DNA of 64,000 nt from positions 62,001 through 126,000 of the forward strand of contig WYAX01000029.1 of assembly GCA_011525625.1 (NCBI GenBank). Reading direction: 5' to 3'. The stretch comes from Nitrospira defluvii (GTDB lineage: Bacteria; Nitrospirota; Nitrospiria; Nitrospirales; Nitrospiraceae). Numbering within the stretch: the first letter of the stretch is position 1; each line of letters begins with the position of its first letter. Below, one piece after another: positions 3,001 to 45,258 of this stretch. The notes under the pieces are model-generated. The model did no database searches. It worked only from the letters and a program-made list of their open reading frames with translations, and was not told the origin of the DNA. The position numbers were made by a program, and so were the translations under genes.

Positions 3001-4193
3001 GAGTTTTCGTGGGCTTTGGTCACGGTTTTGGTCACGGTTCCAGAACCGATTTTTAACGAATCCAGCTTATCGACCGCTTGCCGATTCCCGCCTGGAATCA
3101 GATGCCCATAGGTGTCACAGGTGATGGTAATCGACGCATGGCCCAGTTGTGCTTGGACGTATTTCAGGTTCTCCCCATTCGCGATGAGTCGGCTTGCATA
3201 GGTATGGCGGACACTATGCATATCCAGTCGTCGTAGTCCTGCCTTCGCGATCATCGGAAACCACAGTTTGTAGCGCAACCAATTTTCGGCCATATAACTG
3301 GGCTCCCGTCTGGTTCCGCCAAGGTTGCCTGGAAAGAGGATTTCAGTCGCTGGGTGTCCAGCGGCTGCCGCCTCCAGATCCTGTAGCTCGATCCATTCCG
3401 TCAGAGCCGTTGCGAGTCCCTGGGACATGTCCACCCGCCGGGCCTTCCCGTTCTTGGGTGTGCCCAGGATTCCGCGCGACCAGTTCCGTTGCACGTAGAT
3501 TGATCGGCTGTGAAAGTTCAGATCGCCCCGATGGAGTCCTAGCACTTCTCCGGCTCGGAGGCCGGTGCGAAAGAAGGTCAGGGCCATCGGGTAAAACAGC
3601 GGGCGTTCGCGTCGGACGGTCTCCAGCAACAAGCTTTCTTCTTCCGGCGTGAAGATCGCAAGTTCTGATTCCTCGATGGTCGCCGGCCGTTTCAGCAGTT
3701 TCCCGGAACGGAGGGCAGGATTATGAGTGATCAGCCCGTCTTCCACGGCTTCGGTCAATACCGCGCTGAGCGTGAGTAGCGCATTGAGAGCCGTATCGAA
3801 ATCGAGCCCCTTTTCAAGCAGCCCTGCGGCCCATGCTTTGATTCGGGGTCGTGAGATGGCGGAGAGTTGCGAAGTCCCAAAGGCGGGGAGGGCATGTTTT
3901 CGTAATCGCGACTCGTACGTCTTGATCGTCGTAACCTTCTTGCCGCGTGCGGGTTGGTTTTTGAGCCACGTCACGAAGTAATCTTTCAGGAGGATTGATT
4001 TTGTCTTTTTCGGTTTGGGAAAGAGTTTTCCCTCTCGTGCTTCGGCCTTCAACTTGCCATACAGCGTGCGTGCTTGGCTTTTGGTGTCGCACTTGTGCCA
4101 TGTCTGGCGTCCCTCTTCATAGACACGCACCCACCAGCCTTCCCGGCCTTTCCGCTGGGTAATCCCTCTATCCTTTCCCGCTTTTCTTGCCAT
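2997..4193 (-). CDS. Tyrosine-type site-specific recombinase/integrase
   Basis: A 398-residue integrase. The N-terminal third has an AP2-like/arm-binding segment (GWWVRVYEEGRQTWHKC) and a SAM-like core-binding domain (about residues 75-165). The catalytic domain shows all expected residues: Arg in TGLRAGEVLGL, Lys in NGKARRV, H-x-x-R in MHSVRHTY, His in QLGHASI and the nucleophile Tyr in CDTYGHL. The start is ATG 4193 with AAAGGAGG upstream; the longer open frame to 4415 is the shadow of the overlapping upstream gene. Its C-terminal codons (TVTKTVTK) form part of a 28-bp repeat found again at the right end. The stop overlaps the target gene's stop by 4 bases. Confidence 0.95.
   Translation of the reverse strand: MARKAGKDRGITQRKGREGWWVRVYEEGRQTWHKCDTKSQARTLYGKLKAEAREGKLFPKPKKTKSILLKDYFVTWLKNQPARGKKVTTIKTYESRLRKHALPAFGTSQLSAISRPRIKAWAAGLLEKGLDFDTALNALLTLSAVLTEAVEDGLITHNPALRSGKLLKRPATIEESELAIFTPEEESLLLETVRRERPLFYPMALTFFRTGLRAGEVLGLHRGDLNFHSRSIYVQRNWSRGILGTPKNGKARRVDMSQGLATALTEWIELQDLEAAAAGHPATEILFPGNLGGTRREPSYMAENWLRYKLWFPMIAKAGLRRLDMHSVRHTYASRLIANGENLKYVQAQLGHASITITCDTYGHLIPGGNRQAVDKLDSLKIGSGTVTKTVTKAHENS
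3016..3043. repeat. 28-bp end repeat, left copy
   Basis: Identical over 28 bases to 8661-8688, in the same orientation. Each copy contains two tandem TTGGTCACGGTT units. This copy lies inside the 3' end of the integrase gene, where it encodes TVTKTVTK. It could be an arm-type binding site for the integrase, or simply integrase coding sequence with the right copy a relic of another integrase gene. Confidence 0.75.
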
Positions 4194-4845
4194 GGCGGTC
4201 CTCCTTTCGTCGTGCGGTCTTGCGGTCAGTCTTCTGGCTGTCGCGCCACTTTCTCGCCGCGACGCGGTTTTGACAGCGGGGCTGACAGTACAGCTGGTCG
4301 CGTCTGATCGCGAAAAAGATCGTGGCGCATTCCGGACAACGCCGGATGTAGTCCCCCGTGTGGGCCAGGAGGTGGACAAACCGGTATTCAAACTCCTTCG
4401 CCTTGCGTTTCGCACTCACGATGACCGTCCCGGCCTCGTCAGAGCCCTCACCCGGCGACACCACGACCAGCGTCATCTGCGGAAACGTGAAGGCGGTGTA
4501 GCCTTCGTGCCAATAGAGCTCCAAGTGCTCCAGGACGGCAGCCTGAATGTCCAGGGCTTCTTTGCGACTGGGTATCGTCTGATAGTTCTTCGCGTGAGGC
4601 ACGCCCTCCACGCTCCAGCCACTCTCCGGGGCCACCATCCCGCCATAGCGCTCCCCCGTCTCATCGACAAAGGCCGCGACCTCAAACGCTACCAGCGTCC
4701 ATTCCGTGGGCGTCAAAGCCTCCAGATCGGTCTGTAAAAACCGGAGCACCCACCCCACGGCGCCATCCGGCATCGTCTGGATACGCTCCATCGCCTTCTG
4801 ATACTCCAGTTGAAAGTCCTGCTCTGCGTGCCCCTGTGCGCTCAT
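4168..4845 (-). CDS. CGNR-type zinc-finger protein
   Basis: A 225-residue protein. The C-terminal 55 residues contain a CxxC then YCxxxC-QNR zinc finger (RRCPECATIF, YCQPRCQNRVAARKWR), typical of CGNR-finger proteins, followed by a very basic tail likely to bind nucleic acid. The N-terminal 150 residues are predicted alpha/beta and unrecognised. The chosen start at 4845 (MSAQGH) has AAGGAG eight bases upstream; the frame is open to 4935. The stop lies 26 bases inside the integrase gene, so the two are translationally coupled and this protein may help control integration or excision. Common beside integrases of GC-rich islands; function is inference. Confidence 0.75.
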   Translation of the reverse strand: MSAQGHAEQDFQLEYQKAMERIQTMPDGAVGWVLRFLQTDLEALTPTEWTLVAFEVAAFVDETGERYGGMVAPESGWSVEGVPHAKNYQTIPSRKEALDIQAAVLEHLELYWHEGYTAFTFPQMTLVVVSPGEGSDEAGTVIVSAKRKAKEFEYRFVHLLAHTGDYIRRCPECATIFFAIRRDQLYCQPRCQNRVAARKWRDSQKTDRKTARRKEDRHGKKSGKG

Positions 4846-4987
4846 GCCTTCAGCTCCTTTTTCACGCTGACCCCTCCCTAAATTCCTGATCCCAACACCA
4901 CCGAAAAATGTGTCGTGCGAAAGGGCTCTCTGCACCGGAATGTGTTTGGCAAGTGTACCTCCGGCTTGTTAATGGGTGTCAAGAAGA

Positions 4988-5015
4988 ATCACGGCTCAAC
5001 AATATAAGCCGTGAT
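4988..5015. promoter_or_regulatory. Inverted repeat between divergent integrase and excisionase genes
   Basis: Perfect 9-bp arms ATCACGGCT (4988-4996) and AGCCGTGAT (5007-5015) separated by 10 bases, in the 202-bp divergent intergenic region of the element, 33 bases before the excisionase-like start. Position and symmetry fit an operator for a dimeric regulator; without a U-run it is a poor terminator. Confidence 0.5.
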
Positions 5016-5047
5016 CATTTTTGAACCATTCTTGAAGGAGGTGCCCG

Positions 5048-5257
5048 ATGGTCCCCAGTACAAAATTGATCACCATTCGAGAAGCGGCCAACCGGTTAGG
5101 GCTGAAGGAAAGCACGATCAGGAAATACATCCTGAATCGGCAGATTGCCTATGTGAAGCCGTCGGTGCGAGCCGTGAGGATTCCTATCGAAGAACTGGAA
5201 CGGATTCTGGCTGCCGGCCTGAGGCCGGCCATTCCTCAAGCGGAGGCTGCCCGATGA
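5048..5257 (+). CDS. Excisionase-like helix-turn-helix protein
   Basis: A 69-residue protein of the MerR/excisionase HTH_17 type: TIREAANRLGLKESTIRKYI forms the winged-helix recognition unit and RIPIEELERIL the following wing/helix. Such proteins bind att-site DNA and tilt tyrosine integrases toward excision, or act as repressors. The ATG has an excellent GAAGGAGG site. It is divergent from the integrase operon and overlaps the next gene by 4 bases (ATGA), so it starts a three-gene operon. Confidence 0.8.
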   Translation: MVPSTKLITIREAANRLGLKESTIRKYILNRQIAYVKPSVRAVRIPIEELERILAAGLRPAIPQAEAAR

Positions 5258-5967
5258 GCCGCTGGAAGGAGTTCCGGCGGGAGCCTGTCGCCGGGGAATG
5301 GACTAGGAAGCAGAAGCGGGGCTATCACCGCGTCCGGTCGCTACTCTGGTTCTGGGAATGCCACCAGTTCCAAGTGCTGTGGGTCACCCTCTCGACGGCA
5401 GAGGGCGGGGATGCCGAGAAGCTGACGTATCACCACAAGCAGCTGAGGCAACGCATCGAACGCCAGCTGGGGTTTCAGGGGTTGGAGTATTACCAGGTCC
5501 GAACGGAAGAAGGGCATGGGGTGCTCCATATCTTCTGGGCCTGGCGGGTGTCGGATGGGGAACGCGCTCGCCGCTTTTGGATCTCCCAGGAATGGCTGTC
5601 GGCGCAATGGCAAGCCCTCCACGGGGCTCCGGTCGTCTGGATCAAGGCGTATCAGCCCAGCCATCGTTCCCGGAACCGTCTCAGCCGCTACGTCATTAGC
5701 CAATATGTCCAGGATCAATGCGGCTACGTGAACATGTGCTGGTCCTGGAAACGGTCTCTGGGGTTCCCTATCAGCCGACTGTGGGAAGAGATGCGGTACC
5801 AATGGTCTACGAGGAACGCCTATCGCCGGATCAGGGGTGAGATCGAAATCCCAAAGATCGTCTTTCTGAAGACCTGGGAGGATCTGCTCTCGGGGCATCC
5901 CATCTGGTTTAGCGGCACCATTCTGCAACTCGTATTGGGGAAGGGGCTCGTCTACCAGGAGGTCTAA
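5254..5967 (+). CDS. Putative replication-initiator-like protein of the element
   Basis: A 237-residue basic, tryptophan-rich protein translated from an ATG overlapping the previous stop. The frame also runs upstream to 5011, but that part is the shadow of the HTH gene. The layout resembles rolling-circle replication-associated proteins: a VLWVTLSTAEGG strand, a helix, an EYYQVRTEEGHGVLHIFWAW strand pair where an HUH motif would lie (here only one His, H-I-F), and a later SRYVISQYV tyrosine helix and W-SW-RSLGFP segment. The second HUH histidine is missing, so either the assignment is wrong or the enzyme is altered. Unknown otherwise; it may be a DNA-binding accessory protein. Confidence 0.45.
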   Translation: MSRWKEFRREPVAGEWTRKQKRGYHRVRSLLWFWECHQFQVLWVTLSTAEGGDAEKLTYHHKQLRQRIERQLGFQGLEYYQVRTEEGHGVLHIFWAWRVSDGERARRFWISQEWLSAQWQALHGAPVVWIKAYQPSHRSRNRLSRYVISQYVQDQCGYVNMCWSWKRSLGFPISRLWEEMRYQWSTRNAYRRIRGEIEIPKIVFLKTWEDLLSGHPIWFSGTILQLVLGKGLVYQEV

Positions 5968-5969
5968 GG

Positions 5970-6212
5970 ATGATCTGGCATCGATGTAGTCTCAAGCAGC
6001 CCAGCCTGTTTGGTCCAGCCTGTTGCGGACGGGAAGCGACCACGTACGACCGGGCGAGGAAAGCCTGGCTCTGTCCTGAACATACCAAGGAACGACTCTG
6101 TGAATTCTGCCAGTCAGAACGGGCCTGGGCGAGACTCTGTTATGTCGTGGACGATGTCCTCAGTGAGGTCTGGCTCTGTGCGGATTGTGCGGGACTGACG
6201 CGGCGACGATGA
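5970..6212 (+). CDS. Small cysteine-rich (zinc-ribbon-like) protein
   Basis: An 80-residue protein with eight or so cysteines in pairs (ACCGRE, LCPEH, LCEFCQ, LCADCAG), consistent with one or two zinc ribbons. It begins 3 bases after the previous stop, preceded by AGGAGG, so it is the last gene of the HTH / Rep-like / zinc-ribbon operon. No enzymatic motif. Small zinc-ribbon proteins of this type accompany replication and integration genes in small islands; its role here is unknown. Confidence 0.6.
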   Translation: MIWHRCSLKQPSLFGPACCGREATTYDRARKAWLCPEHTKERLCEFCQSERAWARLCYVVDDVLSEVWLCADCAGLTRRR

Positions 6213-6540
6213 GACCATCAAATTAATGTGTCCCTGTCACCCGTCCACTATCCGCCACGGGTGAGAGGGAGCAATGCTCCTTCCTCGTACCAGGCGGCGA
6301 TGCGTCAGCTTGGCCGCCTCTCTGGTTGATCGTTGAGTACAAACACAGAATGAAGAACAGGGATACTGAAACCATGGGGAGAATTAAACGCAAAGATTCC
6401 GCCCAACGAGGCCGCCCGGCCGTTCCGGACCGATGGACCGGACGGCCGGGGGGATCGGGGGCGCAGCCCCCGCTTCACTTGATCTATATGGTCAAAGTAG
6501 GAAGCTTTTTTGTTGAAGTCTCGGCCACTAGGTAAATTAT
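6213..6540. other. Intergenic region with GC-rich hairpins
   Basis: No convincing gene. The open frame 6326-6535 (+) runs through two hairpins and has no ribosome site. The stretch changes from the GC-rich operon to the AT-rich cargo. The hairpins at 6415-6471 are the only clear structure. Confidence 0.5.
6415..6471. other. Two adjacent GC-rich hairpins (possible origin or terminator)
   Basis: The first hairpin has arms 6415-6428 and 6438-6450 that pair at 13 positions with one bulged base. Seven bases later, GGGGGC-GCA-GCCCCC (6457-6471) forms a perfect 6-bp stem. Neither is followed by a U-run, so a simple intrinsic terminator is unlikely. Their place behind the Rep-like gene and before the cargo fits a replication or transfer origin of the element; this is inference. 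Confidence 0.45.
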
Positions 6541-6619
6541 CTATGCCCCACTATTGACACACCATTTATTTTGCCGATAATAAGCAATAAAAATAGTCCA
6601 ATAGCACTAGTGGGGATAG
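6541..6619 (+). promoter_or_regulatory. Cargo-operon promoter bracketed by an inverted repeat
   Basis: A near-consensus sigma-70 promoter: TTGACA (6554-6559), 16-base spacer, GATAAT (6576-6581). It sits between arms CTAT(G)CCCCACTA (6541-6553) and TAGTGGGGATAG (6608-6619), which are inverted copies of each other over 12 bases apart from one extra G. The left arm abuts the -35 box and the right arm covers the ribosome-binding region of the first cargo gene at 6623. This arrangement suggests autoregulation, plausibly by one of the winged-helix-like cargo proteins. Confidence 0.65.
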
Positions 6620-6622
6620 CTA

Positions 6623-7000
6623 ATGGCGAAAGCAACTATTAAATCAAAAACGGGACTCGCAATAACGATTGAAGGAAATGATAGAGAAGTTGCCCATATT
6701 TTGAAGATTATCGAGCATGGCGACTCAGTTGGTCAGGGCAGGGGGGCGGCGACCAATGCCAAGGGATCTCACTCGCGAGGGGATGAGAAAAAGCGCTCCG
6801 CGACCTCCGATTTAATAATGGGATTAAAGGATGAGGGATTTTTTAATAAGCCAAGAGGGTTATCGGATATAGCAGGTTCATTGGAAGAAAAAGGTTACAT
6901 TTACCCCGTAACGACGTTATCAGGCGTAATGTTAGGTTTGGTTCAGAAGAGACTGTTGGGTCGGAAGAAAGTTGAAGGAAAGTGGGTATACGGAAAATGA
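6623..7000 (+). CDS. Cargo protein 1: small protein with C-terminal winged-helix-like domain
   Basis: A 125-residue basic protein, AT-rich relative to the host. The N-terminal 35 residues form a beta/alpha unit (TGLAITIEGNDREVAHILKI), then a Gly/Ser/Lys linker, then a conserved-looking domain at about 60-125 (DLIMGLKDEGFFNKP...). The same domain pattern, I-x-x-L-x-D-x-GFF-x-x-P, appears in the fourth cargo gene at 8262-8588, so the two are paralogous over this part. It ends with a predicted wing (KKVEGKWVYGK). First gene of the cargo operon, directly downstream of a strong bracketed promoter. Function unknown; DNA binding is inferred. Confidence 0.7.
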   Translation: MAKATIKSKTGLAITIEGNDREVAHILKIIEHGDSVGQGRGAATNAKGSHSRGDEKKRSATSDLIMGLKDEGFFNKPRGLSDIAGSLEEKGYIYPVTTLSGVMLGLVQKRLLGRKKVEGKWVYGK

Positions 7001-7061
7001 GCTCTGCAAATCCGGAGAGTATTTTTAAAACATATGAAAGAAGACTCTATGGGGATTGCAA

Positions 7062-7478
7062 ATGATAAAAGAGGAGATGTTGGCCAAGCTCGATCGCATT
7101 AAATCTCTTGCTGATGAAGTGATAGGCGAATTAAACGGAAAGCAGTCCGATCGGTCTAAGCCTCGTACAACTGGCGATAACAAGCACGTTCATGTGTCTT
7201 TTCATCCTAATACACTTGCTTTCATGAAACAGCATTCTCGAGGCTGCTCTGGACCGGAAAAGGTCACTCTCTTGTTGGCACGTTTGACTAAAGGAAACAT
7301 TGCCGAACAAGTCTCCTCCATAGAAATTGAAAAACAGTGGAACAAAATGAAGAGTGTCTTAGGAGGGAGATTTAATTCCGCGTATCTGAATAGAGCAAAA
7401 GCCAACGGGTGGATAGATAGCACTAAGCATGGAATCTACACGTTGACGAATGTATGGAATGAGGCTTTGAAAGCATAA
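7062..7478 (+). CDS. Cargo protein 2: small helical N-terminus plus winged-helix-like C-terminus
   Basis: A 138-residue protein from ATG 7062 (a TTG at 7056 is possible). The first 25 residues (EEMLAKLDRIKSLADEVI) are an amphipathic helix suited to oligomerisation, matching in style the N-terminus of cargo protein 4. After a charged linker, residues about 45-138 look like a winged helix ending YLNRAKANGWIDSTKHGIYTLT. No catalytic motif. The stop TAA is immediately followed by the ATG of the next gene, so the two are coupled. Unrecognised family. Confidence 0.65.
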   Translation: MIKEEMLAKLDRIKSLADEVIGELNGKQSDRSKPRTTGDNKHVHVSFHPNTLAFMKQHSRGCSGPEKVTLLLARLTKGNIAEQVSSIEIEKQWNKMKSVLGGRFNSAYLNRAKANGWIDSTKHGIYTLTNVWNEALKA

Positions 7479-8252
7479 ATGAGCCTTACTACTCTCAACC
7501 ACCTCCTAATCCCGTTTTTTGTCAAGAAGCACGTCGAGGCATCAACGCGCCATTTTGTGGGTATGGTCAAACATTTTGAGCTTCAGGAATGGGAAGACTG
7601 CATAGCAAAGGCTGGAAAATTTATTGAAGCCACTTTAAAGGCATTGTGGGTTCGCGCTGGAAAGACCGTGCCGGACGGAAGAGCTTTTAGCGCGGGCAGC
7701 CTGATTGATGGCTTGGGGCAGCTTTCCCAGGGATCTATTAGTGATTCCATTCGACTAACAATTCCGCGAGTAGGTCGTTTTGTTTATGAAGTCGCTAGTA
7801 ATCGTGGGGGAAGACACGATCCGAATGAAATTGACCCAAACGAAATGGATGCCAATGTCGTTACAATGAATTGTTCTTGGGTTCTAGCGGAGATGGTCAG
7901 GTGTGCTCAGCACGGGATTGTCGGTAGCGATGTGGCTAAGGTCATGGTGGACTCTCTGGTCAAGAAAAGGTATCCGCTCATTGAGGAAGTGGACGGTAGA
8001 ACATACTTCCACTTTCATGGAGCAAGCGCGGTCGATATTGCCCTGCTAGCGTTGGCACATGTATCGCCACGACGGATATCGTCTTCGGAGTTGTCTTTGC
8101 TGTTAAAAAGACATCGATTCTCAACCCAAAATGCCAGGGTCGCTGTTAGTCGAATTAGAAGATATGTGGATGAAGATGAAAATGGTGGAATGCGGCTATT
8201 AATACCAGGTCTTCGGAAAGCGGAGAATTTGAAGAATGGGCGGCAGACTTAA
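7479..8252 (+). CDS. Cargo protein 3: HEPN/Abi-C-like protein
   Basis: A 257-residue protein starting at the base after the previous stop. The N-terminal 140 residues are helical and end in a segment, YEVASNRGGRHDPNE...NCSWVLAEMVR, that resembles the C-terminal helices of Abi-C/HEPN-type abortive-infection proteins, where an R-N-x-G-x-x-H motif precedes a final helix. HEPN proteins are usually RNases; the exact R-x4-6-H spacing is not met here (R-G-G-R-H), so catalysis is uncertain. The remaining 110 residues look like another winged helix (SSSELSLLLKRHRFSTQNARVAVSRIRRYV). Predicted effector or sensor of the cargo module; inference. Confidence 0.55.
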   Translation: MSLTTLNHLLIPFFVKKHVEASTRHFVGMVKHFELQEWEDCIAKAGKFIEATLKALWVRAGKTVPDGRAFSAGSLIDGLGQLSQGSISDSIRLTIPRVGRFVYEVASNRGGRHDPNEIDPNEMDANVVTMNCSWVLAEMVRCAQHGIVGSDVAKVMVDSLVKKRYPLIEEVDGRTYFHFHGASAVDIALLALAHVSPRRISSSELSLLLKRHRFSTQNARVAVSRIRRYVDEDENGGMRLLIPGLRKAENLKNGRQT

Positions 8253-8261
8253 GGAGTTTAT

Positions 8262-8588
8262 ATGAGCGCAAATCCCTTGGAAGAAATCCTTGCGCGTTTA
8301 GACCGTCTTGAGAAGGTGGTTTTCCCCGCGTCGCCGAAGGTCAGGAGTGTTAAGAATCCATCGTCTGTAGCGGACAATGGCTTGCCCACCCATATACTAA
8401 AACTACGAGATCAGGGCTTTTTCCAAACACCCAAAACAATAAAAGAGGTTCACGGTAAGCTGGGATCTAGTTATCACTGCGAGGCAGATCGTGTAGCGAT
8501 GGCTTTATTGAGGCTCCAACGCAGAAAGGAGCTTCGAAAAGGTTCCAAGATCATAGGCAAAAGGAAGCAAGTCGCCTACATCTGGTAG
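8262..8588 (+). CDS. Cargo protein 4: paralogue of cargo protein 1 in its C-terminal domain
   Basis: A 108-residue protein. The N-terminal helix (NPLEEILARLDRLEKVVF) is a short coiled-coil, then a linker, then the domain shared with cargo protein 1 (HILKLRDQGFFQTPKTIKEV...RRKELRKG...KQVAYIW). It follows cargo protein 3 by 9 bases with AAGGAG-like sequence (taaggagttt) before the ATG. The combination of oligomerising helix, linker and winged-helix-like end is repeated in three proteins of this operon, suggesting a hetero-oligomer. No known family. Confidence 0.65.
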   Translation: MSANPLEEILARLDRLEKVVFPASPKVRSVKNPSSVADNGLPTHILKLRDQGFFQTPKTIKEVHGKLGSSYHCEADRVAMALLRLQRRKELRKGSKIIGKRKQVAYIW

Positions 8589-8660
8589 TCCACCCCTCGA
8601 TACCAACCCCGCGTTATATTCTCAGGCAGAAACTTTGGTCTTCCTCATATAAGTAGTTTC

Positions 8661-8688
8661 TTGGTCACGGTTTTGGTCACGGTTCCAG
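8661..8688. repeat. 28-bp end repeat, right copy
   Basis: Identical to 3016-3043. Read on the minus strand it encodes GTVTKTVTK followed four codons later by a stop (KLLI-TGA), as in the C-terminus of the integrase, but a stop codon lies just upstream in that frame. It may therefore be the relic of an earlier integrase gene end, or an arm-type binding site. Confidence 0.7.
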
Positions 8689-8804
8689 GTCAAATTTGGT
8701 CATAAATGGTCGCAACCAAGTTGGGGCGGCGATGGCCACTTTCTCTTTATATTTCATGGACTAGCGCGATAAATCGCAGTCAGTCGCAATTTGGGCCTTT
8801 CGAA

Positions 8805-8825
8805 TAAGTACATCGCCTGCGATGC
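8805..8825. repeat. attR-like direct repeat
   Basis: Perfect copy of 2949-2969. Codons continue in frame to TAG 8854-8856, giving the original end of the target protein. Confidence 0.85.
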
Positions 8826-8856
8826 GACGGTATTTGCGCAGAAGGCAAAAGGGTAG
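8806..8856 (+). pseudogene. Displaced original 3' end of the 64-residue target gene
   Basis: Seventeen codons including stop, reading KYIACDATVFAQKAKG, homologous to the last codons of the gene at 2806-3000. It has no start of its own and was cut off by the integration. Comparing the two ends shows two terminal residue changes brought in by the element. Confidence 0.8.
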
Positions 8857-8960
8857 GGGCGTGACGTTTTCCCAAAACGACGGCAATCTAAAGTTATAAC
8901 AATATGTCATAGTACGGCCCGCCGCCGACTCTGTAAATCGATGAACGGGCAGGGACCCAA

Positions 8961-10844
8961 ATGGACTCAGATCGCAACTCAGTCATAGAGCTCTTCAAAC
9001 CAGAGCGGCAATACTGTGTGCCATTCTATCAACGGGCATATGTTTGGAATCAGGAAGACCAATGGTCGCGCTTGTGGTCCGACATTCAGGAAAAGGCTGA
9101 GGCACGCCTTTCCGGCCTCACTGCCACGCCTCATTTCATGGGTGCCGTTGTTCTCGACCCCCAAGACCGCAAGAAACTCATCGGCGTTGAGAGGGTTCAC
9201 ATCATCGACGGCCAGCAACGCTTCACGACAATTCAATTTGCGCTCGCGGCGCTTTCAATTATGCTCCGCGCATGGGGGCACACCGATGTCCTCTCGGTCG
9301 TTGAGGCATGTCTGCGCAACTCCGATGAAAGGAATATGCGCAACAAGAAGTCTGAGGTTTTCAAAGTCTGGCCCACGTTCTACGACCGGAAGTCATACGC
9401 GCAGGCTATCCACGCAACGAAGCTCGACGATCTTCGGATCTCGTTTCCTGAACATTTTACACAGCAGAGAAGCCTCAAAAAGATTGGTGTGCGGCACCCG
9501 CCAGCGCTGGCCGCAATTTGGTATTTCGCAACACAAATGGACGCGTGGCTACCTAAGACGGGCAAGCCAGGCCAAGAATCCGACGAAGCCTTGGCCTCTG
9601 CCATCCTGGAGGACCTTGTCGTCGTCTCGATCACGCTGGATGCCGAAGATGACGCGCAAGTCATTTTCGAGACTCTCAATGGTCATGGCGTAGAGCTGAC
9701 GGCGAGGGACTTAATTCGCAACTATGTATTCCTTCGTGCCGAGGCGGAAGCAGTGGATGCGGAGAAGTTGTACCAAGAGCAATGGCGACGATATGAGAGC
9801 GATGGATGGAAACAGGATGAGCGGCGCGGTCGTCTCGTGCGGTCACGCGTTGAATGGTTTATCCAGACCGTTCTGCAGGCAGAGATGCGCGACGACATCG
9901 ACCAAGGGCGGATATATGCGGAATACCAACGCTATACACGCCAAACCAATCTGACCGCATCAGCGCAGTTGACGACCCTTGCCAACTATGCGGATGCATA
10001 TGAGGCCTTGCTCGATGGTGATGAGAGCAAGCCTATCGGACGCTTCGGCAGGCGCTACGCGCCGTGGGACGCGAGTACGACCTACGTGCTAGCTCTCGCA
10101 ATCGCAAAGAGCGGAGTCTCTGAACAAGAACAAGACGCCATGCTCGGCATGCTTGGTTCCTATCTTGTGCGCCGTGCTATCTGCGGCCTTACGAACAAAA
10201 ACTACAACAAGGTCTTTCTTCAACTGCTCAAAAACGTGAAAGGAAACCCGCTTGATCCTGAGAGTCTTCGTGACGCCGTCTCGGCATTCACTGGGGAGGC
10301 CACGCGCTTTCCCACAGACGATGAGTTTCGCGCAGCAATCCTCCGTGGTCCGATGTATCCGGGGCGTCTCGATGCGCCGAAGGTGCGGTCGATTCTTGTC
10401 GAGCTGGAGAATGAGCTACGGACCCAGCGTACGGAGGAACCTGTTGCTCCCGCGCTGGCAAACTTGGACATCGACCACCTGATGCCCCAGGAATGGCCTG
10501 CCTACTGGCCATTGATGGACGGAACGAGCGCGACTGCGCAGGAACTGGCTCAATCGCAGACTGCCCAGTGGGTTGATGAGAAGAAGTTGACGGACCGGCA
10601 GAACTCCTTGCTCGCACGCGAGGCTGCAATTCCAACGTTCGGTAATCTCACCTTGCTTCACTACGGGACTAACAGGGCTGCCAAGAATCGAGAGTTCGGA
10701 TTCAAGCGCGACCTGTTCTTGCAACATTCAAATCTACACCTGAACCGCGAAATACTGATTGCTGAAAAGTGGGACGAAGATAGCATCCTCAAGCGAGCGG
10801 AGGTGCTTAGTATTAATGCGCTCCGAATCTGGCCGGGGTTGTAG
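8961..10844 (+). CDS. GmrSD-type (DUF262-DUF1524) type IV restriction endonuclease
   Basis: A 627-residue single-chain enzyme of the GmrSD family, which cleaves modified (for example glucosylated hydroxymethylcytosine) phage DNA. The N-terminal DUF262 (GmrS) part has PFYQRAYVW near residue 23, IDGQQRFTT near 82 and FETLNGHGVELTARDLI, the ParB-like NTPase signatures. The C-terminal DUF1524 (GmrD) His-Me nuclease part has DIDHLMPQEW near residue 504 and the downstream FGNLTLLHYGTNRAAKNREFGFKR asparagine region. All key motifs look intact. A CAGGGA ribosome site precedes the ATG. It lies just outside the right repeat of the island, with no obvious partner gene. Confidence 0.9.
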   Translation: MDSDRNSVIELFKPERQYCVPFYQRAYVWNQEDQWSRLWSDIQEKAEARLSGLTATPHFMGAVVLDPQDRKKLIGVERVHIIDGQQRFTTIQFALAALSIMLRAWGHTDVLSVVEACLRNSDERNMRNKKSEVFKVWPTFYDRKSYAQAIHATKLDDLRISFPEHFTQQRSLKKIGVRHPPALAAIWYFATQMDAWLPKTGKPGQESDEALASAILEDLVVVSITLDAEDDAQVIFETLNGHGVELTARDLIRNYVFLRAEAEAVDAEKLYQEQWRRYESDGWKQDERRGRLVRSRVEWFIQTVLQAEMRDDIDQGRIYAEYQRYTRQTNLTASAQLTTLANYADAYEALLDGDESKPIGRFGRRYAPWDASTTYVLALAIAKSGVSEQEQDAMLGMLGSYLVRRAICGLTNKNYNKVFLQLLKNVKGNPLDPESLRDAVSAFTGEATRFPTDDEFRAAILRGPMYPGRLDAPKVRSILVELENELRTQRTEEPVAPALANLDIDHLMPQEWPAYWPLMDGTSATAQELAQSQTAQWVDEKKLTDRQNSLLAREAAIPTFGNLTLLHYGTNRAAKNREFGFKRDLFLQHSNLHLNREILIAEKWDEDSILKRAEVLSINALRIWPGL

Positions 10845-11040
10845 GGATCGCTTGGACTATCTACATTTTGGCGATGGCGCATCAGCGTTTTTTTGTGATT
10901 CTCGATAAGAAGGATGGTGGTTCGTTTTTCGTGATGCTCCGCTGTTCCTGTAAGCTTTACGTTCACGAAGGCACAGCTGGCAAAGAATCTCCAGCTCCTG
11001 CTGTTGCCGAGAAAAGTCTGGCAGCGTAGTGCCCGCTTGT

Positions 11041-12273
11041 CTACACCCGATCCCCGACCGGGTCCCATTCGTGGTCTCGCTCGACGGCGCTGGTCAGCCG
11101 TTCGAAAATATCCGGGATGGCGCCGGTGACCCGGCTCCAGTTCGAGATCATCGGGACCCCGAGCGGGTCTTCGAGAAACGCGTCCGTGGCGATCTTCATG
11201 CCCTTCAAAAACACTTCCACGGCCATTCGCTCTGCGTGCCGATCGAACTGCAGACTGTTGATGGCGGCATCGTTCTGATAGCGCGTGATGGCTTCCTGCG
11301 CCGACTGCAAATAGGTCGCGCGCAAGGTTTTGAGCACGCCCTCCGACAGCACCACGCCTTCGCTGGCCAGGTTTCGGAACAGCGACTTGGTGATGTCCAC
11401 ACACATTTTCTGCAGTCCCTGTTCGGCATTGTCCGCCGACAAACCTTGGTGCTTGTGTTCGTAGGCGTCGGCGATATCGGCTTGGCAAATTCGTCTGAGC
11501 GCGCAATTACGATAGATTTCGGAGAGGACGCCGACTTCCAACCCCCAGTCGCCGGGCACCCGGTTGATCCAGGCCAGATCGCGCACCATGGCAAATTCTC
11601 CCGCGAGCGGGTAGCGAAAGCTGTCGAGAAAGGTCAGCAACGGATGGACGCCGGCCACCTGCTGGAGGCTTCGAATCAGCGGGGTGAAATACAGGCGTGT
11701 CACGCGGCCGTGCAGGCGATTCGTCACCCGGCTGTAATAGCCCTTGCAGAATTCGTAACCGAGATTGGGGTTGACGATCGGATAGCAGAGTCGGGCGAGA
11801 TATTCGCGGTTATAGCTGAGAATGTCGCAGTCGTGCAGCGCGATGACGTTGCTCTGGCCACGAGCTAGTACGTAGCCGAAGGCCATCCAGCAGCCCCGGC
11901 CTTTGCCCTGCAATCCGGTGTCGAGTTCGGCATGGGCCAGCAGTTTGAGGATGTCCTGAATACCCGTCCCGTCGTTCCAAACGATCCGCACCCGTTGGGG
12001 CAGGACGGAGAAGAACTGTTTGGCCAGGCGAAACTCCAGGGCTGAGGCGCGATCCAATGAAATGACGATTTCGTTGACGTACCGGATGTCTTTGAGGACT
12101 TCGACGATGTGTTTGAGCGCGGGGTTCTCCAGCTCGGAATAGAGCGAGGGGAGGACCAGGGCGATCGGGTTCGTCGCCGCGTGCCGTTCCAGTTCCTTTT
12201 CGAGTTGGTCGAGATTAGGTGCGCCGATACGGTGCAAGACGGTGACAAGACCGTTCTGATGAAAATCGGACAT
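11041..12273 (-). CDS. Family-81-like glycosyltransferase (glucosyl-3-phosphoglycerate synthase-like)
   Basis: A 410-residue cytoplasmic GT-A glycosyltransferase. The metal-binding motif is HDCDI (in VIALHDCDILSYNREY), and the preceding GKGRGCWMAFGYVLA region is the sugar-nucleotide-binding part seen in glucosyl- or mannosyl-3-phosphoglycerate synthases. These make the precursor of the compatible solutes glucosylglycerate or mannosylglycerate from NDP-sugar and 3-phosphoglycerate. The start is ATG 12273 with GGAGGG upstream; the frame extends to 12315. No phosphatase partner is adjacent, so the substrate is not certain. Single gene with 130 bases to the next upstream gene on the same strand. 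Confidence 0.65.
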   Translation of the reverse strand: MSDFHQNGLVTVLHRIGAPNLDQLEKELERHAATNPIALVLPSLYSELENPALKHIVEVLKDIRYVNEIVISLDRASALEFRLAKQFFSVLPQRVRIVWNDGTGIQDILKLLAHAELDTGLQGKGRGCWMAFGYVLARGQSNVIALHDCDILSYNREYLARLCYPIVNPNLGYEFCKGYYSRVTNRLHGRVTRLYFTPLIRSLQQVAGVHPLLTFLDSFRYPLAGEFAMVRDLAWINRVPGDWGLEVGVLSEIYRNCALRRICQADIADAYEHKHQGLSADNAEQGLQKMCVDITKSLFRNLASEGVVLSEGVLKTLRATYLQSAQEAITRYQNDAAINSLQFDRHAERMAVEVFLKGMKIATDAFLEDPLGVPMISNWSRVTGAIPDIFERLTSAVERDHEWDPVGDRV

Positions 12274-39802: not shown

Positions 39803-41380
39803 ATGTCTCGGAACTTGGTGGTTTGCTGTGATGGCACAGGCAATATCTGGGGCAATAATCACGATACGAATGTTGTGAAGCTTGTTCGGCTGCTTCAGAG
39901 AAACACCCAGCAGATTCTCTACTATGATCCCGGCGTTGGGACCAGCGACACCTACCCAGCGATAGGCTGGACCAATCGATTAAAGGTTCGTGCCAATCAA
40001 GTGCTTGGATTGGCGCTTGGAGGAGGTGTCTATGAAAATATCGGTGGAGCTTATGGATTCCTCGTGGATCACTACCAACCCGGTGACCGTTTGTTCTTCT
40101 TTGGTTTTTCACGCGGAGCATTTACCGCACGTTGTGTGGCTGGAATGGTGAATCTATTTGGCATTGTATCTCGTGGGTCTGAGCAGATGATTCCAACCAT
40201 GACACGCATATACTTTCAGCCCATCGAAGGTGTTGGGGTTACGGGGAAAGATCGAAAGAGTTATGGCGATGATATACGCGCAGCGTTTGCACGTGAGGGA
40301 CAGGATGCGCGGGTGCATTTCTTGGGAGTATGGGACACCGTTAGTACTGTCGGTGGGCTTCCGTGGTCCAAGAAGAACATTTCGAGCTCCGGAAAAATTC
40401 AGGGGAAAAGCTACAATCACGTTCGACATGCTGTAGCGCTTCACGAGTATCGGTATCCCTACGCCCCACGCCTGTTTTCCGAGCCCTGCTTCGAAAATGA
40501 GAATGCCTCATTGAAACAGTACTATTTTGCAGGCGCTCACAGTGATGTTGGAGGCTCTTACGATGAGGACGGGCTCTCAGATTGCAGTTTGAAATGGATG
40601 GTTGAGGAGGCGATTGCCAAAGGCTTGCAGTGTGATCAAACTTTGATTGACAAGATTCAGCCCAACCCATTGGCTCTGGCTCATGATCAACCCTTTAGAC
40701 AGTCTTTGTGGGCGCTTTCAGGCTTACAAACCCGTCTCCTTTCGCAGATTGTTCCCAAGCATGAATCGCTGAAGGCCCGCGAACGCGCCCTGAAATCCAC
40801 AACGAGTCCGAAGACAGAATGGACACCGTTATTACGTAACCCTAGGGTGGCTGGTTCAGCCGGAATTGTACTTGTGATGCTGTCTGTCCTCTACCTGCTT
40901 GGAAGCTGGGCTTGTTTGAATATCTGTGACGGAGAATTTAATTTCGCCATCCTCAGATCACTCATTGAAGGCAGGGGTGGGTGGGATGTTTTTAGTACGG
41001 TCAACACCGAACGCATGACCCTGCGTTACACAGCAGATTTAATTTTTATCGTCGCCTATACGTATATGATCTGTTGGCTTCTCGTATATGCACGACGTGC
41101 CCTTGCTGAACGAAGCGCAAGCGCTGACGTGCATCAATTCGCCCAATGGGCAGGATTACTTCCATTGTGGACCCTCATTGGGAGCGACGTCATCGAAAAT
41201 CTGGCAACGCTGTATCTCACGAGCCAGCCAGCAGGTGTTCGCGAAACTCACGTTGTTTTATTGTACGGGCTGGGATTCTTTACTGGCATAAAGCTGTTTG
41301 CCATGGTGGCGCTCGTCGGATATTTCGTCTGGCTTGGAGCAAATTTGGCTTCTCATCCAAGGTTGTTCCGTTATGTTTGA
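39803..41380 (+). CDS. DUF2235 alpha/beta-hydrolase with C-terminal membrane helices
   Basis: A 525-residue protein. Residues 1-340 match DUF2235, the Tle1-like phospholipase family: N-terminal LVVCCDGTGN, nucleophile elbow GFSRGA with Ser103, and later HFLGVWDTV and AGAHSDVGG segments that contain the acid and other catalytic-region residues. Residues about 350-525 hold four predicted membrane helices, unusual for a plain DUF2235 enzyme. It probably hydrolyses lipids at the inner membrane. ATG 39803 has GAGGAGG upstream. GC is lower than in host genes. First gene of the accessory block; the small 2-TM gene follows by 35 bases. Confidence 0.85.
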   Translation: MSRNLVVCCDGTGNIWGNNHDTNVVKLVRLLQRNTQQILYYDPGVGTSDTYPAIGWTNRLKVRANQVLGLALGGGVYENIGGAYGFLVDHYQPGDRLFFFGFSRGAFTARCVAGMVNLFGIVSRGSEQMIPTMTRIYFQPIEGVGVTGKDRKSYGDDIRAAFAREGQDARVHFLGVWDTVSTVGGLPWSKKNISSSGKIQGKSYNHVRHAVALHEYRYPYAPRLFSEPCFENENASLKQYYFAGAHSDVGGSYDEDGLSDCSLKWMVEEAIAKGLQCDQTLIDKIQPNPLALAHDQPFRQSLWALSGLQTRLLSQIVPKHESLKARERALKSTTSPKTEWTPLLRNPRVAGSAGIVLVMLSVLYLLGSWACLNICDGEFNFAILRSLIEGRGGWDVFSTVNTERMTLRYTADLIFIVAYTYMICWLLVYARRALAERSASADVHQFAQWAGLLPLWTLIGSDVIENLATLYLTSQPAGVRETHVVLLYGLGFFTGIKLFAMVALVGYFVWLGANLASHPRLFRYV

Positions 41381-41415: not shown

Positions 41416-41856
41416 ATGGAGCAAGAACAAAGGCCTATACCGCCAGAGGTTGAGCAACGTTTGAAAACATGGATGCGTATGTGGAGAGTGTTTCTTCATG
41501 CTCACTATTCATTGGGAATAGTGGGAGTATTGTCGAGCACTCTCGCTGCGGCCCTTCCAAAACAAAATGACATATGGTCTGGGCTTATCCCAATTAACGC
41601 CGTATCTTTTTTTGCCGTCATTTCTGCGTGTTGTTTTGCCATCATCGGTTTTGTTGCGCCTGATAAGCGCTATATCGGCCTGATCCGGGCCTGGCGTGCG
41701 CTTGATGTAGCGCTTGCCAGATATCGGCGAGGACTAATCACGGTGGAGCAATTGTTTGAGACATTAGAACAGTGCGAGACACTAGCCACTGAACCATCTC
41801 GGCATGAATCGTCCTTGGATAAACTCGATCTTCCCGCTGCGGAAGGCAAATTATAG
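41416..41856 (+). CDS. Small two-TM protein (SLATT-like)
   Basis: A 146-residue protein with a short N-terminal helix, two membrane helices (about residues 28-50 and 58-82) separated by a tight turn, and a C-terminal helical domain (RYIGLIRAWRALDVALARYRRG..EQLFETLEQCETL). This topology and the R-A-W-R-A-L-x-x-A-L-x-R-Y pattern resemble SLATT-type two-TM effectors predicted to perforate membranes in CBASS-like and SLOG-linked systems. Assignment is by pattern only. The ATG at 41416 has GAAAGGGAT upstream. Confidence 0.5.
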   Translation: MEQEQRPIPPEVEQRLKTWMRMWRVFLHAHYSLGIVGVLSSTLAAALPKQNDIWSGLIPINAVSFFAVISACCFAIIGFVAPDKRYIGLIRAWRALDVALARYRRGLITVEQLFETLEQCETLATEPSRHESSLDKLDLPAAEGKL

Positions 41857-42233
41857 CCCCAGCAATTGGGCAAGATGAGATTGCCCTGTAGGTACACAAT
41901 ATGCCGGTGCCATTCTCCGCTGAAAGTCTGACCTTACAGCTGAAATTAGTCTCGTCGCAGTCAAACGTTAACTGCAATGGAACATTTCTTGGATCATCCT
42001 TCAGAATCAGCCCACTGTGGCCAGCCCCGACCGAGGCGTTGCGCGTCGCCGAATGTGCTAAATGTGTGTTCTACCACGCCCTTAGGGCTCGCCTATCGGT
42101 CGCCTCATTCAATCTGCGTATAAGTGGTTACTCTGTGCGAATTGATAGCCAGAGGCGCGAGGTCCCGTATTCATTGCCTATTCCAGTGTTTGTATTGCAG
42201 TGAGAGTCTTTGGCAAAAAGGGAGGTGGCCACA
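41857..42233. other. Intergenic region inside the accessory block
   Basis: An open frame of 100 codons (41901-42203, +) has no ribosome site, no homologous feel and atypical composition; I treat it as chance. The region probably carries the promoter of the protease-hydrolase gene. Nothing else is recognisable. Confidence 0.4.
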
Positions 42234-44171
42234 ATGCCTGTCATTAGATTCCCCGCTGGGGACAAGGATGTACGGCTGCGTACGTTGGATGTTCGAGCCG
42301 ACGATTCCGATGCTCGAGATTATATCTTTCAACCGAGCCTCACCCTGCTCCCTGAAGAGAAGCACCCACTTGCTGGTATCCCTGTGCTCGACCAGAGGCA
42401 GGAGGGCGCATGTGTTGGATTTGCGTTGGCCACGGTGATCAATATCAGCATGCGTGCGCGTGGCGAAAATCGCCGCTCGGGACGGTTTAACCAAGTCAGC
42501 GCGCGGATGCTGTACGAGATCGCTAAACGGTACGATGAGTGGAAAGGCGAACATTACGATGGGACCAGCCCCCGTGGTGCCATGAAGGGCTGGCATCACC
42601 ATGGGGTGGCTTCGGAAAAGGTCTGGTCGTCAAAAGGGAAGCTCGCGAAAAGCGGTTTGTGGGTTACTGACCGATCTTTCACGGTTGCTAGAGCTGAGGA
42701 GGCGAAACGGCGTCCCATTGGCGCCTACTATCGTCTCATCGACAGCGATGTCGGGAATGTGCAGGCGGCGCTTGTCGAAGGAGATGCCGTTCTCGCGTCA
42801 GCCTGGGTCCACGACGGCTGGGATCAGGAGAATGTGAAGATGCGTCGACGTATTGCCTATCCGACCATTCGCTTTCAAGCGAGATCGAAGGGGCTCCATG
42901 CCTTTGCGATGGTGGGATATACAGCGGACGGATTCATTATCCAGAACTCCTGGGGACGCAGTTGGGGAAAGAACGGTCTAGCTTTGTTGCACTATGAAGA
43001 TTGGATGGAGCATCGACAGGACGCCTGGGTATCCAGGCCAGGACCCGAGACCAGAGACTCCAAAGGACGACCGGCTGTCTTTGTGGCGGGCTTTGCCGGT
43101 TCGTCTATCCCGCTCGGCAAGGATACGCAGGTACGGAGTTCTGGTGACGGCCTCGAACTCAGCGATCCGGAGGTCCTGTCCCATCTGATCAATACGGGCG
43201 ATCGGGGAGCGCTTTCGACCGGCGGATCATTAACGACCTGCCCTGCTCAGTTACCTGGAATGGCTCAGCGAGCGCTTGCCGCTCCAAAACTGAATGATGG
43301 ATATCACCACGTGATGCTATATGCGCACGGTGGGCTTAATTCGGAAACATATGCCATTACTGTCGCGAATCGCATCTGGGGAATCGCCAAGAGCCAGGGC
43401 ATCTGCCCCTATTTGTTCATTTGGGAGAGTAGCTGGGATGAATCGCTTATGGGATATCTCCGAAGTGAAGATGATCAGGCGGGGCCTGCGGGATTCAGAT
43501 TTGGGGATGCTTGGAGCAAGTTCAAGGAAAGCCTAGGAAAGGTCGTCAGAGAGGGGCAAGAGTGGATGGGAGAACAACTCGCTCCTGCCGTGCGCACTGC
43601 CTTTTGGAACGAAATGAAAGGCCGCTGCGAGGGCGCCACAAAGACAAACGGAGGCGTAAAACTGTTTCTTGATCAATTGTTCAAGGCCATGCAGACAACA
43701 CCAGGTGAACGGTACAAGATTCATTTGGTTGGCCATAGCGCGGGGTCCATCCTGCACGGGTTCTTGTACGAGAATGTGCTACGGGACAGACTGCCGGATA
43801 TGCCAAACGTTTCCTTGGCGTCGATTCAGTTTCTCGCGCCGGCAATCTCCATAGCTCGCGCGAAGCAGGCATTTGGTTCTGGAAACAGTAAGGCGGTCCC
43901 CGAATCAAACTTTCTGGTGCATACATTGGCGCCCAAAGATGAGGCGTCCGATAGCATCGTCCTATACCCCAGTTCTCTACTGACTTATGTGGCAGATCAC
44001 CTGGAGGGTTCCACTCGGGTCCCTGTCCTTGGAATTAGGGATGATTTTGAGTCGGGAGGTGTGACCTTTGCCACTGGTCGGTACGCCACCGCTTCTCATC
44101 GCCATGGAGAATTCGATGATAAGGGACATGAAATTGAAGATGTGATCCAAGCGATAGGGGATGCCCGGTAG
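42234..44171 (+). CDS. Papain-like (C1A) protease fused to an alpha/beta-hydrolase
   Basis: A 645-residue two-enzyme fusion. The N-terminal part (about 35-270) is a C1A cysteine-peptidase domain without its propeptide: Gln and Cys in LDQRQEGACVGFALAT (Cys60), His222 in GLHAFAMVGYT and Asn238 in IIQNSWGRSWGKNG form the catalytic set. The C-terminal part (about 360-645) is an alpha/beta hydrolase with YAHGGLNSE and the nucleophile elbow VGHSAGS (Ser502). There is no signal peptide. ATG 42234 is preceded by GGGAGGT. A protease domain may activate or regulate the lipase-like domain. Its neighbours are a DUF2235 hydrolase and membrane proteins. Confidence 0.85.
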   Translation: MPVIRFPAGDKDVRLRTLDVRADDSDARDYIFQPSLTLLPEEKHPLAGIPVLDQRQEGACVGFALATVINISMRARGENRRSGRFNQVSARMLYEIAKRYDEWKGEHYDGTSPRGAMKGWHHHGVASEKVWSSKGKLAKSGLWVTDRSFTVARAEEAKRRPIGAYYRLIDSDVGNVQAALVEGDAVLASAWVHDGWDQENVKMRRRIAYPTIRFQARSKGLHAFAMVGYTADGFIIQNSWGRSWGKNGLALLHYEDWMEHRQDAWVSRPGPETRDSKGRPAVFVAGFAGSSIPLGKDTQVRSSGDGLELSDPEVLSHLINTGDRGALSTGGSLTTCPAQLPGMAQRALAAPKLNDGYHHVMLYAHGGLNSETYAITVANRIWGIAKSQGICPYLFIWESSWDESLMGYLRSEDDQAGPAGFRFGDAWSKFKESLGKVVREGQEWMGEQLAPAVRTAFWNEMKGRCEGATKTNGGVKLFLDQLFKAMQTTPGERYKIHLVGHSAGSILHGFLYENVLRDRLPDMPNVSLASIQFLAPAISIARAKQAFGSGNSKAVPESNFLVHTLAPKDEASDSIVLYPSSLLTYVADHLEGSTRVPVLGIRDDFESGGVTFATGRYATASHRHGEFDDKGHEIEDVIQAIGDAR

Positions 44172-44319: not shown

Positions 44320-45258
44320 ATGGACGAGTCAACGCAGGTGATTAGCTCTGAACTAAGGGAAGCACGAGAAGCAGCTAGAGGTGCGGTGATTGCTTATAGA
44401 GGGCAATTTGAGCAGTCTGTTAGCGTGAGTCGGGGTATGTCGGCTCCTCTCGATGAGGAGCTGATCAAAGTTGTGATAAGAAAGTTCGGCGACCTAGAAG
44501 CCAGGGCTGAAAAAGCCGCAACGGAAACCGAGTTGGAACAGATAGAGGATGAGGCTGCAATCTCGTATCGGCTCCGTGCATATACTTTCGCCTTGCCTGA
44601 GATCCCGATACAAGGTGCAAGTGTGTTGAGTAACATGGAGCAGTGGACACTTCCTGCGTCTGCTCTGGAGATTTTAAAGAAAGAGGTGGTCTCAGAGCTC
44701 AAGTCGACCGATCTTCAAAAGTCTCGTGCTGCACTTCATGCTTTGTTTAAAGAGTATGACGAGTGGAGTGAGTACCAGGACAATTACAATAGGGAGATGA
44801 GTCGGCTGACTTGGTGGCTTACCGGTGGAATTGCAGGGTCTCTATCGTTGGCGTTGACATGCCTTTCCCATGGCTTTGTCTCTTTCGGGGTTGCGTTTGC
44901 CGGTATTACTGGATCCTGCGTAAGTGTCATTTCGAAAATACCAAGCGTAATCGTGTCGGGAGATTCGGCTCCATATCACCGAAGCGCGATCCGGAGGCTT
45001 GCTACGGGGTTTGTTGCAAGTATGGTAGGTGTAGGTGTTCTGCTATCTGGCATGGTGCCGATTAGCCTGCCAGGCGGAGAAACGTTTCAGGATATAATCG
45101 CCGGTCTATCTGGTGCCTCTGCGAGTTCCACGAAGAGTTTGTCGAATATAATACAGGTGTTTGAGGCTTTAGCAATTGTCACCCTCTTGGGAATAAGTGA
45201 GCGAGCACTTACGACCTTTGATGAGAAAATATTTCAAGCGAAGGACCCAAAGTCATAG
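44320..45258 (+). CDS. Helical membrane protein of unknown function
   Basis: A 312-residue protein. Residues 1-160 are soluble and helical, with charged coiled-coil-like segments (ARAEKAATETELEQIEDE). Two or three membrane helices follow at about 166-205 and 227-250, and a hydrophobic helix near 285-300. The C-terminal tail is cytoplasmic or periplasmic. The layout, a helical domain followed by membrane spans, resembles predicted membrane effectors, but no family is recognised. It is the last gene of the accessory block, with lower GC than the following host genes. Confidence 0.6.
   Translation: MDESTQVISSELREAREAARGAVIAYRGQFEQSVSVSRGMSAPLDEELIKVVIRKFGDLEARAEKAATETELEQIEDEAAISYRLRAYTFALPEIPIQGASVLSNMEQWTLPASALEILKKEVVSELKSTDLQKSRAALHALFKEYDEWSEYQDNYNREMSRLTWWLTGGIAGSLSLALTCLSHGFVSFGVAFAGITGSCVSVISKIPSVIVSGDSAPYHRSAIRRLATGFVASMVGVGVLLSGMVPISLPGGETFQDIIAGLSGASASSTKSLSNIIQVFEALAIVTLLGISERALTTFDEKIFQAKDPKS

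What the first reader, a model, noticed from the sequence alone, without database searches (positions are those of the whole stretch)
42234..44171. Protease-hydrolase fusion with both catalytic sets intact
Cys60, His222, Asn238 of a C1A domain and Ser502 of a GHSAGS elbow coexist in one 645-residue chain without a signal peptide or protease propeptide. An intracellular papain-like domain in bacteria is unusual, and the fusion suggests that one domain controls the other.
Basis: partly seen in the sequence, partly recalled or inferred. Interest (0 to 1): 0.72.

Follow-up and report, generated by a model that had tools for sequence, protein, structure and literature searches.

The report
Papain protease fused to lipase-like hydrolase
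A Nitrospira gene makes one protein that joins a papain-type protein-cutting enzyme to a lipase-like enzyme; relatives in other bacterial groups keep the protease intact, sometimes swap it for a caspase, and in some lineages lose the lipase's active site while keeping its shell, which suggests the two halves act as a pair.

Summary
ORF 42234-44171 (+), 645 aa, without signal peptide or TM segment, carries Cys60, His222, Asn238 (plus Gln54) in a xylellain-type C1A domain, and Ser502 (GHSAG), HGG365-367, Glu570/Asp573 and His624 in an alpha/beta-hydrolase domain. Both folds are predicted; both domains are under purifying selection. The fusion is not unique: it is an old, transferable family in about 5% of sampled Nitrospirota genomes and on rhizobial, burkholderial, verrucomicrobial and one viral contig. 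The protease triad is kept in all 42 members of the clade examined. Hydrolase residues are lost in one alphaproteobacterial branch (one or two events), where a GDSL-lipase-caspase gene sits next door or a trypsin is fused in front. The same hydrolase family, without papain, is fused to a caspase in a cyanobacterium and a verrucomicrobial genome. So protease-hydrolase coupling is real, but who controls whom is not shown. An intracellular bacterial C1A is not unusual, and a short N-terminal segment may act as proregion. Best reading: a latent two-enzyme effector, similar in logic to published caspase/hydrolase conflict systems. New variant of a known kind.

The parts
42220..42228 (+). Shine-Dalgarno-like GGGAGGTGG before ATG 42234
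   Evidence: sequence
42234..44171 (+). C1A protease - alpha/beta hydrolase fusion, 645 aa (P0001), stop included
42234..42383 (+). N-terminal segment, residues 1-50, with D23..D26.R28D29 motif shared with xylellain; possible built-in proregion (inferred)
   Evidence: low model confidence at residues 1-28
42291..43058 (+). C1A (papain-fold) domain, residues 20-275
   Evidence: 3ois_A Z 27.2, rmsd 3.6, 242 aligned
42411..42413 (+). Cys60 codon (nucleophile); Gln54 (oxyanion) six residues before
42897..42899 (+). His222 codon
42945..42947 (+). Asn238 codon, in NSWG
43059..43157 (+). Variable linker, residues 276-308: low conservation, pLDDT under 50 over 280-308
43161..44168 (+). alpha/beta-hydrolase domain, residues 310-645
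43326..43334 (+). HGG 365-367, HSL-like oxyanion motif (role inferred)
43737..43739 (+). Ser502 codon, nucleophile elbow GHSAG
43941..43952 (+). Glu570 to Asp573, candidate acids after strand 560-564
44103..44105 (+). His624 codon, candidate catalytic His after strand 614-617
39803..41380 (+). Neighbour: DUF2235/Tle1-like alpha/beta hydrolase with C-terminal TM segments (P0002); link to the fusion not shown
41416..41856 (+). Neighbour: small TM protein, no family (P0003)
44320..45258 (+). Neighbour: 312-aa protein with several TM peaks, no family (P0004)

Best explanation
A leaderless, soluble two-enzyme protein in which a xylellain-type papain protease and a lipase/esterase-like alpha/beta hydrolase act as one module. 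Shown by sequence and models: both folds, both catalytic sets, purifying selection, a variable linker, and recurrence of the same hydrolase family with another cysteine protease (caspase). Inferred: the N-terminal segment keeps the protease latent; on an unknown trigger the protease becomes active, cuts at the linker and/or cell proteins, and the hydrolase attacks ester lipids or envelope esters, as an accessory conflict or cell-damage effector. The hydrolase shell also has a non-catalytic role (substrate or membrane docking, or a check on the protease), because it is kept after its catalytic residues are lost.
For: (1) C1A triad kept in every fusion checked: 27/27 and 19/19 rows of a second set, six of which are also in the 27. 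(2) dN/dS 0.07-0.12 in both domains. (3) Same hydrolase family fused to caspase, no papain: Kovacikia Amidase_2-ABH-C14 and a verrucomicrobial ABH-C14. (4) Hydrolase site dead but domain retained where a GDSL-caspase gene is adjacent (S. meliloti, terangae, chiapasense, mexicanum, Rhizobium CC1099, Palleronia) or a trypsin is fused (Paracoccus x2, Roseivivax). (5) Published: caspases in VMAP systems always have an alpha/beta-hydrolase neighbour (PMC7159879). (6) Linker poorly conserved and predicted disordered. (7) Sporadic: 4 intact copies in 29 genomes of the genus and one decayed, with phyla mixed in the tree.
Against: No conserved operon partner in Nitrospirota, no PADLOC hit, no known trigger, no activity data. 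Loss of the hydrolase triad with an intact C1A shows the protease does not need a catalytic hydrolase partner, which weakens a simple 'protease activates lipase' scheme. Linker cleavage is not tested. The GDSL-caspase association is confined to Alphaproteobacteria. The conflict role rests on rhizobial neighbours (caspase, trypsin, YLATT, peptidoglycan hydrolases), not on the Nitrospira locus.
Confidence: 0.4

Rival explanations
1. Accessory degradative enzyme: two hydrolases fused for convenience in protein and ester turnover, both always active, no regulation between domains.
For: Variable gene neighbourhoods in Nitrospirota; own genome has hydrolase-family lipoproteins without any protease; C1A-only relatives exist.
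Against: Repeated pairing with cysteine proteases of two clans and retention of a dead hydrolase shell are not expected of a casual fusion.
Confidence: 0.3
2. Injected or released antibacterial effector (leaderless cargo of a contractile or phage-like delivery system), where the papain domain is a processing or toxin domain and the hydrolase a lipase toxin.
For: Upstream neighbour DUF2235 is Tox-ABhydrolase-1/Tle1-like, described as mainly T6SS-delivered (PMC3482391); rhizobial neighbours include PG amidase and CHAP proteins with PG-binding domains; C1A relatives on viral contigs; papain-like processing peptidases are known in polymorphic toxins.
Against: No delivery module, marker domain or immunity-type gene conserved next to the fusion; hydrolase-family relatives with lipobox-like signals use ordinary export; the DUF2235 neighbour is absent at the closest homologue's locus.
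Confidence: 0.15
3. The hydrolase domain is the regulator: it binds a lipid or acyl ligand and gates the protease, its own catalysis being secondary.
For: C1A catalysis is invariant whereas hydrolase catalysis is dispensable but the domain stays.
Against: Hydrolase triad conserved in all but one alphaproteobacterial branch; the hydrolase also occurs with caspase or alone.
Confidence: 0.15

Closest known systems
Xylellain (PDB 3ois, Xylella fastidiosa; bacterial C1A)
   Same: C1A fold and triad, no I29 proregion, N-terminal D..D.RD motif; best sequence match E 1.2e-8 and structure match Z 27.2, rmsd 3.6, 242 aligned
   Different: Stand-alone about 290-aa protease; no hydrolase domain; 22-24% identity
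alpha/beta hydrolase - caspase pairs of VMAP ternary conflict systems (Kaur et al. 2020, PMC7159879)
   Same: A cysteine protease consistently paired with an alpha/beta hydrolase
   Different: Caspase not papain, separate genes, with MoxR, vWA and VMAP components that were not seen near the window gene
alpha/beta-hydrolase lipases/esterases (Bacillus lipase A 1i6w, TesA 6fvj, PlaB 6zti; weak Pfam relatives DUF900, DUF676)
   Same: Fold, Ser-acid-His order, GxSxG
   Different: Low identity, no family-level match; long helical insertion 431-468; fused to a protease
Polymorphic-toxin processing peptidases, papain-like or caspase-like (PMC3482391)
   Same: Peptidase just upstream of another enzyme domain in one chain
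   Different: No delivery domain, repeats or immunity gene found here

Membership tests
Peptidase family C1A (PF00112) | Score above Pfam gathering cut-off | tested here: met
   27.3 bits against 20.7
Peptidase family C1A (PF00112) | Cys-His-Asn with oxyanion Gln, in papain order | tested here: met
   Q54, C60, H222, N238 invariant
Peptidase family C1A (PF00112) | Papain fold | tested here: met
   AF2 model; top 50 rows are C1A enzymes, Z 20.8-27.2
Peptidase family C1A (PF00112) | Proteolytic activity | not testable with these tools
   no bench data
Xylellain-type bacterial C1A | No signal peptide, short N-terminal segment in place of I29 proregion | tested here: met
   no hydrophobic N-terminus; D..D.RD motif aligned with 3ois; no I29 hit
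Xylellain-type bacterial C1A | N-terminal segment occupies the active-site cleft | tested here: inconclusive
   VIA aligns residues from 4-10 with procathepsin proregions but pLDDT is 30-50 there
alpha/beta-hydrolase superfamily | alpha/beta-hydrolase fold | tested here: met
   pLDDT 85.5; top 50 VIA rows alpha/beta hydrolases, Z 10.4-11.9; Foldseek alone gives only E 0.01-0.08
alpha/beta-hydrolase superfamily | Nucleophile elbow, then acid, then His after the expected strands | tested here: met
   S502 after strand 494-501, E570/D573 after 560-564, H624 after 614-617
Known lipase family (DUF900, DUF676, Tle1-like) | Family-level profile match for this protein | tested here: inconclusive
   none for P0001; a distant fusion L046 hits DUF900 just above cut-off
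VMAP/MoxR-vWA caspase-hydrolase conflict system | MoxR, vWA and VMAP genes next to the pair | tested here: not met
   scanned neighbours are MFS, DUF2235, TM proteins, histidine kinase, epimerase, TPR, and an AAA ATPase 11 kb away; not every ORF of the window was scanned
VMAP/MoxR-vWA caspase-hydrolase conflict system | Same hydrolase family as the published one | not tested
   published sequences not compared
Known anti-phage defence system | PADLOC model match | tested here: not met
   no hit for P0001-P0004

The most novel reading that the evidence does not exclude
A general bacterial effector logic couples one cysteine protease to one lipid hydrolase, in which papain and caspase are interchangeable protease partners and alpha/beta and GDSL lipases interchangeable hydrolase partners; the Nitrospira protein is the minimal single-chain form, with the protease gating or releasing the lipase.
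Probability: 0.25. Interest if true: 0.75.

Novelty: new variant of a known kind. Interest (0 to 1): 0.5.

Why it matters
Bacterial caspase - alpha/beta-hydrolase pairings in conflict systems are known here only from published comparative genomics. A single 645-aa chain holding a protease and a hydrolase, with natural variants in which one catalytic site has died or the protease has been swapped, is a compact system in which the coupling can be tested directly by point mutation. It would also place a papain-family enzyme among bacterial protease-lipase effectors.

Tried and rejected
Operon partner: neighbours clustered over about 40 loci; none conserved in Nitrospirota. DUF2235, P0003 and P0004 as obligate partners: absent at the closest homologue's locus, which has a different 460-aa TM protein there. 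Known defence system: PADLOC negative. Recent plasmid mobility of the window locus: no near DNA match in plasmids. Phage gene: the phages collection gives only weak C1A matches; one IMG/VR contig has a full fusion, two have close stand-alone C1A. Promoter and terminator scan uninformative. The xylellain structure paper is not held; its claim of an 'intriguing activation mechanism' is known only from its title in the reference list of PMC10380794. Literature searches for a C1A - alpha/beta-hydrolase fusion found none; the library lacks most subscription journals. One versus two losses of hydrolase catalysis: the quick tree counts one change, with the relevant fork unresolved.

Full report
WHAT IS THERE. 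The frame 42234-44171 (+) encodes 645 residues. A GGGAGGTGG at 42220-42228 supports the ATG at 42234. There is no hydrophobic segment. The window lies in a 4.6-Mb genome whose best relatives are Nitrospira MAG contigs.

DOMAINS. Pfam Peptidase_C1 covers residues 50-253 above its cut-off; nothing else hits. By sequence the nearest solved protein is xylellain, 3ois, E 1.2e-8, aligned from residue 23, so the N-terminal D..D.RD motif is shared. An AlphaFold2 model from 21 window and locus sequences has mean pLDDT 74.9 and pTM 0.54, so the domain arrangement is not reliable. Its N-terminal half matches xylellain at Z 27.2, rmsd 3.6, 242 aligned. Several procathepsins align from residue 4-10 on, i.e. 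over their proregions, but residues 1-28 have low confidence, so a built-in proregion is only a suggestion. The C-terminal domain folded alone gives pLDDT 85.5 and pTM 0.87. Foldseek E-values are weak (0.01 and up), but all top 50 re-aligned chains are alpha/beta hydrolases, Z 10.4-11.9. S502, E570/D573 and H624 follow the strands expected for nucleophile, acid and histidine; HGG365-367 resembles the oxyanion motif of HSL-type esterases (motif role from general knowledge).

FAMILY. P0001 relatives occur in 39 of 396 Nitrospirota genomes, about 20 of them full-length fusions. In 29 genomes of the genus 4 have an intact copy and one a decayed one; the decayed copy sits in flanks 86-96% identical to a genome with an intact gene. 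Full fusions are also on rhizobial, Microvirga, Ideonella and Eleftheria replicons, on a contig of a record titled Verrucomicrobia and in a second genome of that phylum, and on one IMG/VR contig. A tree of the C1A domain puts 42 rows (40 fusions and two viral stand-alone C1A proteins) in one clade (support 100) apart from C1A-only Nitrospirota proteins, with phyla intermingled: one fusion origin, horizontal transfer, and loss of the hydrolase half in the two viral copies is the simplest reading.

BOTH SITES ARE MAINTAINED, BUT NOT EQUALLY. In 27 full-length proteins C60, H222 and N238 are invariant, as are Q54 and W240; S502, H365 and H501 fail only in S. meliloti, and H624 fails there and is a gap in the truncated L048. 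dN/dS to the two nearest homologues is 0.075 (C1A) and 0.067-0.116 (hydrolase). A second set of plasmid and viral loci keeps the C1A triad in 19 of 19, whereas the hydrolase triad is gone in nine: four Sinorhizobium, Rhizobium CC1099, Palleronia, two Paracoccus and Roseivivax. The losses fall in one alphaproteobacterial branch, as one or two events.

PARTNER SWAPS. Six of the nine dead-hydrolase genes lie directly beside a gene for a GDSL-lipase - caspase fusion (in Palleronia across the plasmid origin). Its GDS and caspase Cys motifs are intact in all of them (the GHG motif was not found by pattern in Rhizobium CC1099). The other three carry a trypsin domain in front (shown by Pfam for L115; L166 and L167 are annotated as trypsin-like). 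Conversely, the same hydrolase family without any papain domain is fused to a caspase in Kovacikia (Amidase_2 - hydrolase - C14) and in a verrucomicrobial genome (hydrolase - C14). R. leguminosarum 248 has an intact-hydrolase fusion and a GDSL-caspase gene in the same island, with YLATT and trypsin genes. Kaur et al. 2020 report that caspases in VMAP systems always have an alpha/beta-hydrolase neighbour (PMC7159879). The protease-hydrolase pairing is therefore more than a single odd fusion.

WHAT THE HYDROLASE MAY DO. More distant relatives in Nitrospirota, including this genome, are hydrolase-only proteins with lipobox-like signals, and two from the verrucomicrobial set are fused to an MGDG-synthase-like glycosyltransferase. 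This points to lipid or envelope esters, weakly. In this genome a second hydrolase-family gene also lies within 5 kb of DUF2235 genes, one of them 63% identical to the DUF2235 neighbour in the window; this was noticed after the fact.

MECHANISM. Shown: fused enzymes, conserved sites, unequal constraint, partner swaps, a poorly conserved and disordered linker at 276-308. Inferred: latency by the N-terminal segment, activation by an unknown signal, cleavage at the linker or of cell proteins, lipid-ester attack, and a non-catalytic role of the hydrolase shell. The direction of control is open: an invariant protease with dispensable hydrolase catalysis fits 'hydrolase shell guides protease' at least as well as 'protease releases lipase'.

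VERDICT. Observation confirmed; interpretation partly supported. An intracellular bacterial C1A is not unusual (35 of 198 Nitrospirota genomes encode a C1 domain, although those were not sorted by export signal; PMC10380794 describes leaderless forms). New variant of a known kind: protease-hydrolase coupled effectors, here with papain in place of caspase.

Noticed in passing
window 39803-41380: DUF2235/Tle1-like alpha/beta hydrolase with C-terminal TM segments; its only close relatives (63%) in the genus are an own-genome paralogue and one in G145, in a locus that also holds a lipoprotein DUF2235 and a hydrolase-family lipoprotein.
   Followed up: partly
L168 (own genome C6:222000-238000) 3215-11079: Run of same-strand genes: hydrolase-family lipoprotein, DUF2235 lipoprotein, two putative lipoproteins, TM DUF2235 protein; near-identical run in genome G145 (L169).
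   Followed up: partly
window 8961-10841: GmrSD-type (DUF262) restriction endonuclease gene with both N and C domains.
   Followed up: no
L039 4964-7006, 10948-12861; L035 3201-5111: Rhizobial caspase-FGE and GDSL-lipase-caspase fusion proteins around the papain-hydrolase gene; the GDSL-caspase protein is found nearly full length on 11 plasmids.
   Followed up: partly
L115 581-7849; L166 from 9436; L167 1-5373: A giant (over 2000 aa) protein of no known family is encoded divergently next to trypsin-papain-dead-hydrolase genes in two Paracoccus and one Roseivivax plasmid.
   Followed up: partly
L156 4038-6929; L157 2791-5403: MGDG-synthase-like glycosyltransferase fused to a distant relative of the hydrolase, in genomes of the verrucomicrobial set.
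   Followed up: no
L060 around 8448-8736: Decayed copy of the fusion (N-terminal part with stops) in a genome whose flanks are nearly identical to one with an intact gene: the gene is dispensable.
   Followed up: yes
window 41416-41856 and 44320-45258: Two membrane proteins of no known family flank the fusion; another membrane protein lies at that place in the closest homologue's locus (L041).
   Followed up: partly
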